Origin: Promethearchaeota archaeon
Lineage (GTDB): Archaea > Asgardarchaeota > Lokiarchaeia > Sigynarchaeales > SOKP01
Direction of reading: 5' to 3'
Length of the DNA: 19,912 nt
NCBI GenBank assembly: GCA_014730295.1
Contig: WJIN01000334.1
Coordinates: forward strand, 1 to 19,912
Numbering within the stretch: position 1 is the first letter of the stretch; each line of letters starts with the position of its first letter. A program made the translations under genes and the position numbers. The notes under the pieces were generated by a model that searched no databases, was not told where the DNA came from, and saw only the letters and a program-made list of their open reading frames with translations. This document shows positions 194 to 19,449 of the stretch, in pieces.

Positions 194-308
194 TGCAGAG
201 AGTGGGATTTGAACCCACGCAGACCTGTGTCAATGGATCTTGAGTCCATCACCGGTAATCTATACATTTAATTGTAAATGTACATTGACCGGGCTTGGTT
301 ATCTCTGC
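194..308 (-). tRNA. tRNA-Leu(CAA) with D-loop intron
   Basis: Read on the minus strand, the acceptor arms GCAGAGA and TCTCTGC pair, followed by discriminator A. The anticodon stem ATGGA/TCCAT encloses loop CTCAAGA, so the anticodon is CAA (Leu, codon UUG). A long variable arm and the T-arm GTGGG/CCCAC with loop TTCAAAT are present. The gene is 115 nt against about 85 nt for the class II tRNA-Leu(UAG) in this window; the excess lies after the conserved GGTCAA of the D-loop and is a hairpin, read as an intron. No CCA is encoded. Confidence 0.93.
255..284 (-). other. Probable D-loop intron of tRNA-Leu(CAA), about 30 nt
   Basis: The extra bases between the D-loop GGTCAA and the D-stem GGT contain a 7-bp hairpin stem (TACATTT at 276-282 with AAATGTA at 263-269, minus-strand reading). 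CCGGT and ACCGG pair outside it. I could not place an exact bulge-helix-bulge, so the boundaries are good only to within about 4 nt; they are set here by the length expected for the mature tRNA. Confidence 0.7.
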
Positions 309-1342: not shown

Positions 1343-1413
1343 TGGGATGCTTAATTTTAAATTGATTTTTCTTTTTATTATAATATTTTATTTAATCAAA
1401 CTTATTAAAATAT

Positions 1414-2370
1414 ATGAGTGAAAGGAAGAAAATCATCATTAAGGTCCCACACAGAGTTACGGGGTTTTTTGAAATTGTTGACACTAAAAATGGTATAAAA
1501 CTAGAAAATCCAGAGCTGATTGGTTCGAGAGGTGCGGGATTTACATTGAGTGCGATGGGGACTACACAAATTTTTTCCGAATCGATAGGGAAAAATAAGA
1601 GAAATTCTTCTAGCTGTGAAATATACATCAATGGTTCTCAAGTTGATAAGGAGGCAGAAACCACGTATTATATCTATGATTATATTAAGAATTCTCTTCC
1701 AAATGCGCATAATATAAAAATATTTCATGAATTCGATCTTCCCGTGGGGTGCGGTTATGGTGCCAGCGGTTCAGGGGCTTTAGGAACTATATTTGGACTT
1801 AATCGATTATTCAATCTAAATCTTTCCGATTTTGAATGTGGTCGAATCGCCCACATAGCTGAGGTGATCAATAAGACGGGATTAGGTACCGTATGTGGTC
1901 AACTCTCTGCAGGGCTTGGTATCGTTGCGGCCCCGGGTTATCCTTGCAAATATGAATATATCAAATTTCCAGCAAATATTCGAGTAATTTGTACTTCATT
2001 TGGGGCAATTTCAACCAAAGAATTCCTCTCTAACCAATCACTTCATTCGATAGTTAACAAACCGGGGAAGGAGGCTCTAAGAAAGTTAAAAATAGATCCA
2101 AATATTAAAAAATTTGCGACGCTCTCATGGAGATTTGTAAAGGATACAAAAATATTGGATATTCTAAACTTATTTAAGATCAGAAACCTTCTTGAAGAAT
2201 TAAACAAAAAACAGATAATTGGTGCGAGTTTAAACCAATTGGGAAAATCTATCTTTGCTATTTGTAAGAAAAAAAGGGTTGATGAGATTACAGAAATTAT
2301 TGAATCCTATCAAACAGTTAACAAAATATATTGTTTAAAAATAGAAGAACAAGGCATTAAAATATTTTAG
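1414..2370 (+). CDS. Pantoate kinase (GHMP kinase family)
   Basis: The product probably phosphorylates pantoate to 4-phosphopantoate, the archaeal route to coenzyme A together with phosphopantothenate synthetase. At 318 residues it is a full-length GHMP kinase. The N-terminal segment VPHRVTGFFE is typical of this subfamily. The ATP-binding glycine loop is at 108-124 (DLPVGCGYGASGSGALG). AHIAEV at 146-151 leads into TGLGTVCGQLSAGLG. In the pantoate kinases I know, that last segment usually reads TGLGDV, so a Thr occupies an Asp position here. The C-terminal GHMP domain includes the GASLNQLGKSIFA segment. Its partner, phosphopantothenate synthetase, is not in the window. It is convergent with proC, with only 6 nt between the stops. 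Confidence 0.85.
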   Translation: MSERKKIIIKVPHRVTGFFEIVDTKNGIKLENPELIGSRGAGFTLSAMGTTQIFSESIGKNKRNSSSCEIYINGSQVDKEAETTYYIYDYIKNSLPNAHNIKIFHEFDLPVGCGYGASGSGALGTIFGLNRLFNLNLSDFECGRIAHIAEVINKTGLGTVCGQLSAGLGIVAAPGYPCKYEYIKFPANIRVICTSFGAISTKEFLSNQSLHSIVNKPGKEALRKLKIDPNIKKFATLSWRFVKDTKILDILNLFKIRNLLEELNKKQIIGASLNQLGKSIFAICKKKRVDEITEIIESYQTVNKIYCLKIEEQGIKIF

Positions 2371-4707: not shown

Positions 4708-5235
4708 ATGTCTCCTAAAGAAGAAACGAAAATTGATATCACTCAAGAAGTTTTCAAAGAACCGATTGAAGTAATTAAACAGTTGACTGCGAATGTAAAT
4801 ATTGAGTATACCAAAGTTATACAAACTTATGTATTGGAAAATAGAATTTTGGAATTGATTTTATTAAAAAATGGTTCATCCTACTTTAAGGGAAAGGTGG
4901 TCTGGATTGGAAACCGTAAAGATGACTCACAAGGTACAGTATTTTGTGTTGATACTAAGACAGAACTTAAAAAGATAAACCCAACTGCAGAAAACACTGA
5001 AGAGATAATATTAGATACTAAGAAAGAAACAATTCTAATCTCTACAGAATCAAAAGCAAAATGCTCAGTATGCGGAAAAGATATCGAAATTTTTGATGAA
5101 GTGATGGGATGCCCTCTTTGTGAAGCAAAAGCTCATAAAGAACATATATTAGATTGGATAAAAATGAAACATAATTGCCCAGTTTGCAAAAAATCTTTAG
5201 ATATCTCCAGCACTGGACAAATAGTAGTTGATTAA
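4708..5235 (+). CDS. RING/PHD-like zinc-finger protein, possible ubiquitin-ligase-type factor
   Basis: This 175-residue protein has a C-terminal cross-brace-type zinc module: C119-x2-C122-x12-C135-x2-C138-x4-H143-x2-H146-x10-C157-x2-C160. The spacing follows the C4-H-C3 (PHD or RING-variant) pattern with His in place of the sixth Cys. The HKEHILDW and NCPVCKK segments closely resemble the H-x-x-C-I-x-x-W and CPxC elements of RING E3 ligases. The first about 115 residues form a separate, probably beta-rich region (LELILLKNGSSYFKGKVVWIG) that I do not recognise. No E1, E2 or ubiquitin gene is in the window, so the ligase role is inference. It is convergent with the HisA-like gene, with 3 nt between the stops. 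Confidence 0.8.
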   Translation: MSPKEETKIDITQEVFKEPIEVIKQLTANVNIEYTKVIQTYVLENRILELILLKNGSSYFKGKVVWIGNRKDDSQGTVFCVDTKTELKKINPTAENTEEIILDTKKETILISTESKAKCSVCGKDIEIFDEVMGCPLCEAKAHKEHILDWIKMKHNCPVCKKSLDISSTGQIVVD

Positions 5236-10608: not shown

Positions 10609-11610
10609 TTGAGTGTTCGTGAATCTTTAATAAAGTATCTGACTTCAATTCTAAGATCTTCAGATGGTACTTTGTTGGTTGTTTTATGTGACTTAGATGG
10701 TTTATCAATAGCCAAAATTGGGAGAAAGAGTGAATTTGAAATAAATCCAAACCAAATTACCAGCCTTGCATCAGCCGCTTTTTCAGTAAGTGAAGAGAAT
10801 TGGGAGGATTTAGAAATTAAAGACCAAGTGATTTCTTTTACGTATTTTGAAAAAGTATGTCTTATTACCATTAAAATTAATCAAACTCTTTTAACAATTG
10901 TTCATGATTATAATGAATACTGGCCTTTGGATGCAGATGGATTAGCTAGTTCGATGTATTATTTGAAACAGAAATTAGGGGAATTTTTTGGAGGGAAAAA
11001 ATCCTCGGAACAAGAGTTAGAAGCCTTTTCTAATAAAGTAAGAAGTGCGATTTATCTTATTGGGATGGGGAGTGATATCCCATTCGTATCTTATACTCCA
11101 GAGAATTATGATCCCTCAAATCCTCTTCCAGCTATAAGTCAGATATTAGATTCAATAAAGAATCCCATTTTTATCCGATATGCATTAGCAGACCCTTCTG
11201 GTCTAATGCTCGATGCCCGGGAATTGGATGGTAAACAATTACCGATTTCCATAGAAGCTTTCTCTGCTAATGCGACAGTCGCATATCAAAAAATGAAAGA
11301 AGAATCGAGTCAAAGTTCTATGGGTGATTTGTTATTCTATCTCGCAATAAGTGGTCAAAATTCAGAAAACTTTTTCGGCATTATCACATGTCCTTCTGGA
11401 ATCCTTGAATTCTCAAAAAAGCGTGATGTCTCGAATATTCAGGAGATCTCATTCATAGGACTATTTTCCTTAGATTACGGGGGTATACCGATAATAGCAG
11501 AAGCGAGAAATATTATATATTCAATTTTGGAAATTCTTGGAACTGAAAAAACTACAGAAAATTTTATTAAAGCAGCAAACACTCTTTTAAGTGCTAGATA
11601 TGAACAATAG
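10609..11610 (+). CDS. Roadblock/LC7-domain protein, probably with two such domains
   Basis: The 333-residue protein opens with a roadblock/LC7-type pattern: helix RESLIKYLTSILRSSD, then GTLLVVLCDLDGLSIAKIG, a helix with SLASAAFSVSEENWEDL, and strands VISFTYFEKVCLITIKINQTLLTIVHD. A second similar unit may follow at about 175-270, with FIRYALADPSGLMLDARELDG, a helix and FFGIITCPSGILEFS. Roadblock proteins bind or regulate small Ras-like GTPases (MglB, Ego/Ragulator, dynein light chains) and are greatly expanded in Asgard archaea, where their partners are mostly unknown. The start codon is TTG. Its 3' end overlaps the tsr3 start, so the two are co-transcribed. Confidence 0.72.
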   Translation: MSVRESLIKYLTSILRSSDGTLLVVLCDLDGLSIAKIGRKSEFEINPNQITSLASAAFSVSEENWEDLEIKDQVISFTYFEKVCLITIKINQTLLTIVHDYNEYWPLDADGLASSMYYLKQKLGEFFGGKKSSEQELEAFSNKVRSAIYLIGMGSDIPFVSYTPENYDPSNPLPAISQILDSIKNPIFIRYALADPSGLMLDARELDGKQLPISIEAFSANATVAYQKMKEESSQSSMGDLLFYLAISGQNSENFFGIITCPSGILEFSKKRDVSNIQEISFIGLFSLDYGGIPIIAEARNIIYSILEILGTEKTTENFIKAANTLLSARYEQ

Positions 11611-18203: not shown

Positions 18204-19449
18204 ATGAGCAATGTTATTATTGGGATTGTCGGAAAGCCGAATTCAGGTAAATATCATTACTAGAAGGCTAAGTTCCGGCAAATCTACCTTTCTAAATGCT
18301 GCCTGTCTGACTAATGCTGAGGTAAGTGAGATTCCATTTACTACTATTGAACCGAACAAGGGGGTTGCATATGTAAAGACTCCATGTGTATGTCAAGAAT
18401 TTAATATTGATGATAATCCAAAAAATTCTTTATGTATCAATGGTATTCGGTTCATACCTATAAATTTATTGGATGTGGCGGGGTTAGTTCCGGATGCCCA
18501 TAAAGGCAAAGGATTAGGAAATCAATTTTTAAATGATCTGAGTCGAGCTGATATCTTAATTCATATTGTTGATATGACTGGATCCTTAGATAAATCTGGG
18601 AATCTTATTGGATCGGGAGAAAATGATCCTTATGAAGATATTGTTTTTTTAGAAAGAGAAATAGATCTCTGGTTTAAAGATATTCTTAAAAGAGAAGATT
18701 GGGAAAGATTTGCTCGGATATTTTCAAAAGAAAAGAAAGGGTTCATAAACGCTTTAGCAGAAAGACTTTCAGGATTAAAAATTAATAAAAATCAAATAAA
18801 AGCAGCTCTTAAAAAATCAGAATTGGAACATAAAGATCTAATTGATTGGACAGAGAGGGATATCGAATTATATGCAAGTAATTTAAGAAAAATATCTAAA
18901 CCAATTTTAGTAGTCGGTAATAAAATAGATAAACAGATTAGTGTGAAAAATTACCAAATATTAAAAGGAAAATATGAAAACAAAATTATCCCAGCAAGTG
19001 CTCTAGCTGAATATATATTACGGAAATATGACGAAGAAAGCACTATTGAATATATTCCAGGTTCGGATGATTTCAAAATAATTAACCCCAATCAACTTAA
19101 TAATAAAGAAATAAACACTTTAGGGAAAATTAAGATAGAATTATTAGAAAAATTTGGGGGAACGGGAATCCAAAAAGTATTTGAATATGCTTTATTCGAT
19201 ATGATGAACCAAATTTGCGTTTATCCTGTTTCTGATGTAAATAAACTAACTGACAATAAGGGAAATGTTTTACCGGATGTTTTCCTGGTGCAAAAGGGCA
19301 CATTATTAAAAGATTTTATCAGAAAAAAAGTACATAGTGAATTAGCAGATAATTTTCTCTATGGTGTGGATGCCCGTTCCAAAAAGCGTTTAAGTGAAAA
19401 TTATGAATTACAGAATAATGATATTATAAAGATAGTATCAACAAAATAG
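18204..19449 (+). CDS. YchF/Obg-like GTPase (OLA1 family), interrupted by a 31-nt protein-coding intron
   Basis: The product is a TRAFAC-class nucleotide hydrolase of the archaeal YchF/OLA1 group. Joining 18204-18240 to 18272-19449 gives 404 residues. It opens MSNVIIGIVGKPSSGKSTFL, with G1 GKPSSGKS at 10-17, then PFTTIEPNKGVAYV (G2), LLDVAGLVPDAHKGKGLGNQFLNDL (G3), VVGNKID (G4), a helical insertion and a C-terminal TGS domain ending in a GVDARSKKR and DIIKIVSTK stretch. Read without splicing, the frame from ATG 18204 stops after 19 codons inside the P-loop. A start at 18211 reads through in another frame but replaces the conserved N-terminus with unrelated residues, so that start is an artefact. 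Members of the family bind ribosomes and act in translation or stress control. Confidence 0.88.
18241..18271 (+). other. Bulge-helix-bulge mRNA intron, 31 nt, within the GTPase P-loop
   Basis: Exon helix: 18226-18234 (TTGTCGGAA) pairs with 18273-18281 (TTCCGGCAA), 9 bp with one G-U. Central helix: AGCC 18235-18238 with GGCT 18266-18269, 4 bp. Bulges: GAA 18239-18241 and AAG 18270-18272, 3 nt each on opposite strands. Intron helix: TTC/GAA then, after an A-A mismatch, GGTAA/TTACT, closing on loop ATATCA (18251-18256). Cutting after the second base of each bulge removes 18241-18271 and restores the frame. Shifting both cuts by 1 nt would change only one residue (Ser to Asn). Confidence 0.88.

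What the first reader, a model, noticed from the sequence alone, without database searches (positions are those of the whole stretch)
18204..18300. Protein-coding gene with a 31-nt bulge-helix-bulge intron inside the P-loop of a YchF/Obg-like GTPase
Seen in sequence: the conserved reading frame starts at ATG 18204, runs into the G1 motif, and is broken by 31 extra nt with an in-frame TAG. Those bases and their flanks fold into a canonical archaeal splicing motif: a 9-bp exon helix, a 4-bp central helix, two 3-nt bulges on opposite strands and an intron hairpin with a 6-nt loop. Excision at the standard cut sites restores GKPSSGKST and an open frame of 405 codons including the stop. Established knowledge: archaeal tRNA endonuclease splices such motifs, and a few mRNA introns are known, notably in cbf5 of Thermoproteota. 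Inference: this is an intron in an essential-type GTPase gene, and expression of the protein depends on splicing. I know of no description of this intron in this gene.
Basis: partly seen in the sequence, partly recalled or inferred. Interest (0 to 1): 0.95.

Follow-up and report, generated by a model that had tools for sequence, protein, structure and literature searches.

The report
Messenger-RNA intron in Asgard GTPase P-loop
A conserved GTPase gene of a Lokiarchaeota-like archaeon is interrupted, inside the codons for its GTP-binding loop, by a 31-base insert that folds into the shape cut by the archaeal tRNA-splicing enzyme and is predicted to be spliced out of the messenger RNA; related genes carry or lack it in a scattered pattern, which would make it a natural test case for how introns in protein genes come and go.

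Summary
It is neither an error nor a one-off: three other Lokiarchaeota-type genomes have the insert at the same site with diverged sequence and the same geometry, and 9 of 120 listed homologues read through it. Four genomes of a sister lineage carry a separate 45-47-nt insert 5 nt upstream. A screen for BHB plus repaired frame over the window and about 0.78 Mb of a relative returned only this intron, once in each. Codons that pair in the exon helix are GTC+GGC in 4 of 4 site-1 genes and 0 of 63 intronless ones. Presence changes at least 8 times on the gene tree. Three of four site-1 introns resemble a diverged tandem copy of the P-loop codons. Splicing itself is inferred; I had no RNA data. 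In the open papers I saw, cbf5 was the only earlier archaeal coding-sequence BHB intron.

The parts
18204..18240 (+). Exon 1: ATG through the first base of the second P-loop Ser codon (MSNVIIGIVGKP + A)
18241..18271 (+). 31-nt predicted BHB intron (site 1)
18272..19449 (+). Exon 2: rest of the YchF-type GTPase to the stop codon (SGKST... , G4 and TGS domains)
18226..18234 (+). 5' strand of the 9-bp exon helix (UUGUCGGAA), pairs with 18273-18281
18235..18238 (+). 5' strand of the 4-bp central helix (AGCC), pairs with 18266-18269
18239..18241 (+). 5' bulge GAA; predicted cut between 18240 and 18241
18242..18250 (+). 5' strand of the intron helix, pairs with 18257-18265 (8 of 9)
18251..18256 (+). 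6-nt intron loop
18257..18265 (+). 3' strand of the intron helix
18266..18269 (+). 3' strand of the central helix (GGCU), inside the intron
18270..18272 (+). 3' bulge AAG; predicted cut between 18271 and 18272
18273..18281 (+). 3' strand of the exon helix (UUCCGGCAA), P-loop codons SGK
18211..19449 (+). Read-through frame from an out-of-frame ATG, 412 codons, lacks the GKP half of the P-loop (what gene callers annotate)

Best explanation
Bases 18241-18271 are a 31-nt insert in the P-loop codons of a YchF-type GTPase gene of a Lokiarchaeota-like archaeon; with their flanks they fold into a predicted bulge-helix-bulge and are a likely mRNA intron that the tRNA-splicing endonuclease would cut between bulge nucleotides 2 and 3 and RtcB would rejoin. 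The joined mRNA would encode the normal P-loop GKPSSGKST and a 404-residue enzyme. Shown by calls: the insert, its fold as computed, its presence at the same site in three other genomes, the repaired frame, purifying selection on the coding part, endonuclease and ligase genes in most of the relatives. Inferred: cleavage, ligation, and that the cell depends on them. Origin and fate, also inferred: the site-1 intron has one likely origin, possibly a 31-nt tandem duplication of the P-loop codons, followed by repeated loss or by transfer; a second intron arose separately 5 nt upstream in a sister lineage.
For: Exact hBHBh' geometry; the BHB cut ties for the best of all excisions of 1-69 nt at 74 starts when scored against 47 intact N-termini, in 8 of 8 intron-bearing genes; a BHB-plus-repaired-frame screen of the window and about 0.78 Mb of relative G001 kept 2 of 176 BHB hits, both this intron; same site in G001, G002 and G108 with diverged sequence, lengths 31, 32, 31; pairs standard in 95.5% of 88 cells against 30.7-55.7% in slid controls; exon-helix codons GTC+GGC in 4 of 4 against 0 of 63; P0002, 98% identical in a separate public record, repeats the read-through N-terminus; dN/dS 0.07-0.10; endonuclease in 7 of 7 and RtcB in 6 of 7 intron genomes; second insert nearby whose length varies 45/47 nt.
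Against: No RNA evidence. Covariation rests on four sequences: 33 of 500 shuffles reach the covariation score, 199 of 500 the number of pairs changed on both sides. L002 has a G.G mismatch in the exon helix. Three read-through proteins (P0011, P0049, P0116) have Lys-Leu where the others have Arg-Leu or Gly-Leu before SSGK or GSGK, which implies a C.A mismatch in their central helix (by codon reasoning; no DNA held). G002 shows no RtcB match and G001 only the subunit type without the His, perhaps because the assemblies are incomplete. Site 2 has a weak exon helix. An alternative ATG exists in the window.
Confidence: 0.92

Rival explanations
1. Programmed ribosome bypassing: the insert stays in the mRNA and the ribosome hops over it between matching codons, helped by the hairpin.
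For: In the window a hop from AAA 18249 to AAA 18280 would give GKPNSGKST, also a sound P-loop; L001 (AGT or AAA) and L040-L043 (AAA) have identical take-off and landing codons too. Bypassing elements with hairpins are known in phage T4 gene 60 and yeast mitochondria (recalled).
Against: L002 has only synonymous, not identical, codon pairs, and so has L010 for any hop that gives a P-loop; the Lys hop in L002 would put Asp at the conserved Gly of the P-loop. Bypassing does not ask for 3-nt bulges on both sides of a 4-bp helix. All seven intron genomes have a splicing endonuclease gene.
Confidence: 0.04
2. No splicing: translation starts at ATG 18211 and makes a 412-residue protein with an altered N-terminus.
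For: The frame 18211-19449 is open, and public gene calls use such frames.
Against: It lacks the GKP half of the P-loop; Pfam MMR_HSR1 then matches only from profile position 8 and the N-terminal profile score falls from 87.6 to -14.4 for the frame of ATG 18204. Of the 8 intron-bearing genes, 5 have no ATG, GTG or TTG in the read-through frame before the P-loop and 2 have only TTG.
Confidence: 0.03
3. Sequencing or assembly error, or a pseudogene.
For: Frame-breaking inserts are a common error class in metagenomic sequence (general knowledge); the window's genome is not held.
Against: Four records carry the insert at the same site with different sequences and P0002 repeats it; about 390 downstream codons are intact with dN/dS 0.07-0.10; the seven intron genomes have no second full-length copy.
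Confidence: 0.01

Closest known systems
cbf5 pre-mRNA intron of Desulfurococcales and Sulfolobales (PMC2738675: abstract and part 1 of 2 of the results read)
   Same: BHB intron inside a coding sequence, cuts predicted between bulge residues 2 and 3, ties to the hetero-oligomeric endonuclease, lineage-specific loss on the gene tree
   Different: Other gene (RNA pseudouridine synthase); most cbf5 structures there are called unconventional BHB, here site 1 is canonical; splicing shown by cDNA there, not here; here at least 8 presence changes and a second site 5 nt away
Archaeal tRNA introns with BHB (PMC6379350, PMC4090602: passages read)
   Same: hBHBh' architecture and the enzymes presumed
   Different: Host RNA is an mRNA; the exon helix is made of P-loop codons instead of the tRNA anticodon arm
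Haloferax HVO_1309 mRNA, cleaved by the endonuclease at BHB sites (PMC7714728: passages read)
   Same: mRNA substrate of the splicing endonuclease
   Different: BHB sites lie in the 5' UTR, no coding sequence is joined
Archaeal YchF / Obg-like GTPases
   Same: Domain order and P-loop GKPSSGKST after excision; 111 of 120 listed homologues have it without an insert
   Different: P-loop codons interrupted

Membership tests
Archaeal BHB (endonuclease-spliced) intron | Two 3-nt bulges on opposite strands around a 4-bp helix, flanked by exon and intron helices | tested here: met
   de novo by scanner; kept in L001, L010 and, with one exon-helix mismatch, L002
Archaeal BHB (endonuclease-spliced) intron | Cuts between bulge nt 2 and 3 give a sound mature RNA | tested here: met
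   Best P-loop score at the BHB cut in 8 of 8 genes, with ties at neighbouring positions
Archaeal BHB (endonuclease-spliced) intron | Host encodes splicing endonuclease and RtcB | tested here: inconclusive
   Window genome not held; relatives: PF01974 in 7 of 7, RtcB in 6 of 7
Archaeal BHB (endonuclease-spliced) intron | Cleavage and ligation in the cell | not testable with these tools
   No RNA data
Archaeal BHB (endonuclease-spliced) intron | Compensatory changes in the helices | tested here: inconclusive
   2 of 22 pairs changed on both sides in 4 sequences; shuffles 33 of 500 for the score
cbf5 pre-mRNA intron family | Lies in the cbf5 pseudouridine synthase gene | tested here: not met
   Host gene is a YchF-type GTPase; it works like the cbf5 intron, it is not one of them
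YchF / Obg-like GTPase | G domain with GKPxxGK[ST] P-loop, G4 domain, TGS domain | tested here: met
   Domains; P-loop only after excision
Mobile intron (homing, group I or II) | Encoded protein, ribozyme core, or copies at other loci | tested here: not met
   31 nt; Rfam gathering search of the window lists tRNA and SSU rRNA only; intron model strong only at the YchF gene of G001, G002 and G108 among 227 genomes

The most novel reading that the evidence does not exclude
The YchF P-loop of Lokiarchaea is a birthplace and graveyard of protein-gene introns: a 31-nt tandem duplication of the GKPSSGK codons made a copy that drifted into a self-complementary BHB which the tRNA endonuclease could excise, so a new mRNA intron was born from coding sequence without any mobile element; it then turned over at least eight times, and a second intron was born independently 5 nt away. 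That is a traceable route of enzyme-spliced intron gain in the archaeal phylum regarded as closest to eukaryotes.
Probability: 0.35. Interest if true: 0.9.

Novelty: new member of a known kind. Interest (0 to 1): 0.8.

Why it matters
Introns in archaeal protein genes are hardly documented: a 2020 paper says that the cbf5 mRNA held the only additional BHB intron reported in archaea (PMC7714728, passage seen). A second gene, in another phylum, in the catalytic heart of a conserved GTPase, means that gene callers start such genes wrongly (none of the 9 read-through proteins listed has GKP) and that others may be hidden. Because intron-bearing and intronless genes stand side by side on one tree, gain and loss of an mRNA intron can be followed at fine scale, in the phylum regarded as nearest to eukaryotes (recalled). 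If the tandem-duplication origin holds, it gives a concrete mechanism for the birth of an enzyme-spliced intron.

Tried and rejected
Start at ATG 18211 without splicing: rejected as the general explanation, since 5 of 8 intron-bearing genes have no start codon in the read-through frame. Ribosome bypassing: kept as a weak rival. A loose BHB hit at 1385-1416 (AT-rich, overlapping the start of another ORF) is within the number of loose hits that shuffles give. Copies of this intron elsewhere: none strong by RNA model in 227 genomes (stricter filters used there), and no other intron of this form by the BHB-plus-frame screen in about 0.78 of 4.6 Mb of G001; the rest of that genome was not screened. 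Internal stops reported for G172, G008 and G052 looked like intron candidates; their P-loops are contiguous (L049-L051). Twenty further genomes, most of them without the strict P-loop pattern, have contiguous, partly variant P-loops (L056-L075). Tandem-duplication signal: shuffles scoring as high were 0, 19, 134 and 0 of 1000 for window, L001, L002 and L010, and 277-905 of 1000 for the four site-2 introns; BHB-constrained random introns 1, 6, 132 and 1 of 1000; the site-1 introns are homologous, so these are not independent tests. One search was a first alignment with a wrong stretch of L010, replaced.

Full report
What is there. The gene at 18204-19449 (+) encodes a YchF-type GTPase: MMR_HSR1 G domain, YGR210-like G4 domain and TGS domain; named homologues in the protein search are YchF or YchF-related GTPases, those with an organism given being of Promethearchaeota/Lokiarchaeota and other Asgard labels. 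It lies next to a tRNA-Ala gene and the end of an archaeal 16S rRNA gene. The two genome matches of the first scan are Lokiarchaeota/Lokiarchaeia (64% and 62% identity). The window's own genome is not held.

The insert. From ATG 18204 the frame reads MSNVIIGIVGKPNSGKYHY*. Bases 18241-18271 and flanks form a canonical hBHBh' motif: 9-bp exon helix, 4-bp central helix, two opposite 3-nt bulges, and an intron hairpin with a 6-nt loop. Excision between bulge nt 2 and 3 gives MSNVIIGIVGKPSSGKSTFLNAACLT and 404 codons plus stop.

Chance. A scanner blind to coding found 18241-18271 among 4 loose BHB hits in the window. Forty dinucleotide shuffles gave 9.1 loose hits each, and in all forty one hit with helices as long as here. 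When excision must also repair a broken frame, 176 BHB hits on both strands of the window plus about 0.78 Mb of relative G001 shrink to two, and both are this intron, in the window and in G001. For eight intron-bearing genes I scored excisions of 1-69 nt at 74 starts against a profile of 47 intact N-termini; the BHB cut gives the best score, with ties at neighbouring positions, in 8 of 8.

Relatives. In a survey of 227 genomes of the phylum, 188 match the protein. I read the N-terminal DNA of 71 of these 188: 3 have an insert at the window's site (G001, G002, G108), 4 at another site (G095, G096, G097, G099), 64 are contiguous. The other 117 were not read. The three site-1 inserts (31, 32 and 31 nt) differ in sequence and keep the motif: with the window, 95.5% of 88 pair cells are standard, against 30.7-55.7% in slid controls; two pairs change on both sides; but with four sequences 33 of 500 shuffles reach the covariation score and 199 of 500 the count of such pairs. 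L002 has one mismatch in the exon helix. A covariance model of the intron gives strong matches (E 1e-20 or better) only in the three genomes that it was built from; eight other genomes match at E 0.01-0.05, two of them (G136, G138) at the P-loop of their own intronless YchF genes.

Silent sites. The Val codon before GK and the Gly codon of SGK are GTC and GGC in all 4 site-1 genes, and together in 0 of 63 parsed intronless genes (0 of 32 close ones); one more intronless gene (L049) has Leu there and was not parsed. Singly, GTC occurs in 3 and GGC in 4 of the 63. These codons pair with each other in the exon helix. The rows are related, so the Fisher values overstate the case.

Second site. L040-L043 carry 45, 47, 45 and 47 nt between GGGAA and ACCTTCTTCC, 5 nt upstream of the window's site, with a 4-bp AGGG/CCCU helix and AAA bulges by eye, an in-frame stop, and no start codon in the read-through frame before the P-loop. 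The exon helix is weak and RNAfold prefers a 5-bp central helix there, so this is a relaxed BHB and a less certain case.

Proteins. Of the 120 best protein matches listed (of 5750), 9 lack GKP and read through a site-1 insert, as does the window's own frame; 111 are intact. P0002 is 98% identical with the same N-terminus in a separate public record, which speaks against a sequencing error. P0085 is the L001 gene; for the other eight no DNA was held. In P0011, P0049 and P0116 a Lys before Leu implies a C.A mismatch in the central helix, which speaks against a perfect motif there.

Turnover. On a maximum-likelihood tree of 72 chosen rows, built without the N-terminus, site 1 (12 rows) needs 8 changes, 8 in the 5-95% range of bootstrap trees, and one clade is rejected (p-AU 6e-85, tested after the tree was seen); the four site-2 rows form one clade. 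The quick tree of 165 rows also gives 8, of which starred branches force 7. The tree cannot tell gain from loss or transfer. Shared site and similar insert sequences favour one origin with repeated loss or transfer. The closest further relatives of the window gene, P0003-P0006 at 76-77% identity, are intronless.

Origin. The intron's 5' end resembles the start of exon 2 and its 3' end the end of exon 1, as a tandem 31-nt duplication would leave: 19, 17, 14 and 18 of 31 bases agree at the offset of the intron length in window, L001, L002 and L010 (best other offsets 13, 15, 14, 16); 0, 19, 134 and 0 of 1000 shuffles score as high. Site 2 shows no such signal. Direct repeats near borders of many kinds of introns have been reported and read as insertion marks (PMC11782384, abstract and passages), so the duplication reading is an inference.

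Function and machinery. Coding parts are under purifying selection: dN/dS 0.07-0.10 for four site-1 pairs (synonymous sites nearly saturated in the far ones), 0.14-0.20 for three site-2 pairs. The seven intron genomes have one full-length copy. PF01974 endonuclease genes occur in 7 of 7, two of them in 4 of 7, RtcB in 6 of 7. One subunit type has Tyr, His and Lys at the places expected for catalysis, the other lacks the His (by eye; residue roles partly recalled). That fits an (alpha-beta)2 enzyme (PMC6379350, passages), the kind tied to cbf5 splicing (PMC2738675).

Known or new. Ten full-text searches listed no title or abstract start on a BHB intron in this gene or in an Asgard mRNA; several lists were capped (for instance 20 of 245, 15 of 108), and subscription papers and preprints are largely outside that library. 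PMC7714728 (passages) names cbf5 as the only case. So I file this as a new member of a known kind, with an unusual place, a second site and unusual turnover.

Noticed in passing
window 194-308 (-): A tRNA-Leu gene (anticodon CAA by eye) with an insert of some 30-40 nt in the D loop, found by Rfam (46.6 bits) and missed by ARAGORN; the insert folds into a long hairpin but I could not place a canonical BHB. Likely a non-canonical tRNA intron.
   Followed up: partly
L040-L043 (G095, G096, G097, G099): Separate 45-47-nt insert in the same P-loop, 5 nt upstream of the window's site, with relaxed BHB.
   Followed up: yes
P0011, P0049, P0116: Read-through N-termini with Lys-Leu before SSGK imply a mismatch in the central helix of their introns; DNA not held.
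   Followed up: no
survey: 39 of 227 genomes show no YchF match; in the window the gene lies beside the 16S rRNA gene, where metagenome contigs often break, so absence may be missing sequence.
   Followed up: no
window 1385-1416 (+): Loose BHB-like hit with a 13-bp, AT-rich outer helix overlapping the start of the GHMP-kinase-like ORF 1414-2370; such loose hits are expected by chance.
   Followed up: partly
window 4708-5235 (+) and 10609-11610 (+): A RING-finger-like protein (Pfam score below the curated cut-off) and a MAPKK1-interacting (roadblock-type) domain protein.
   Followed up: no
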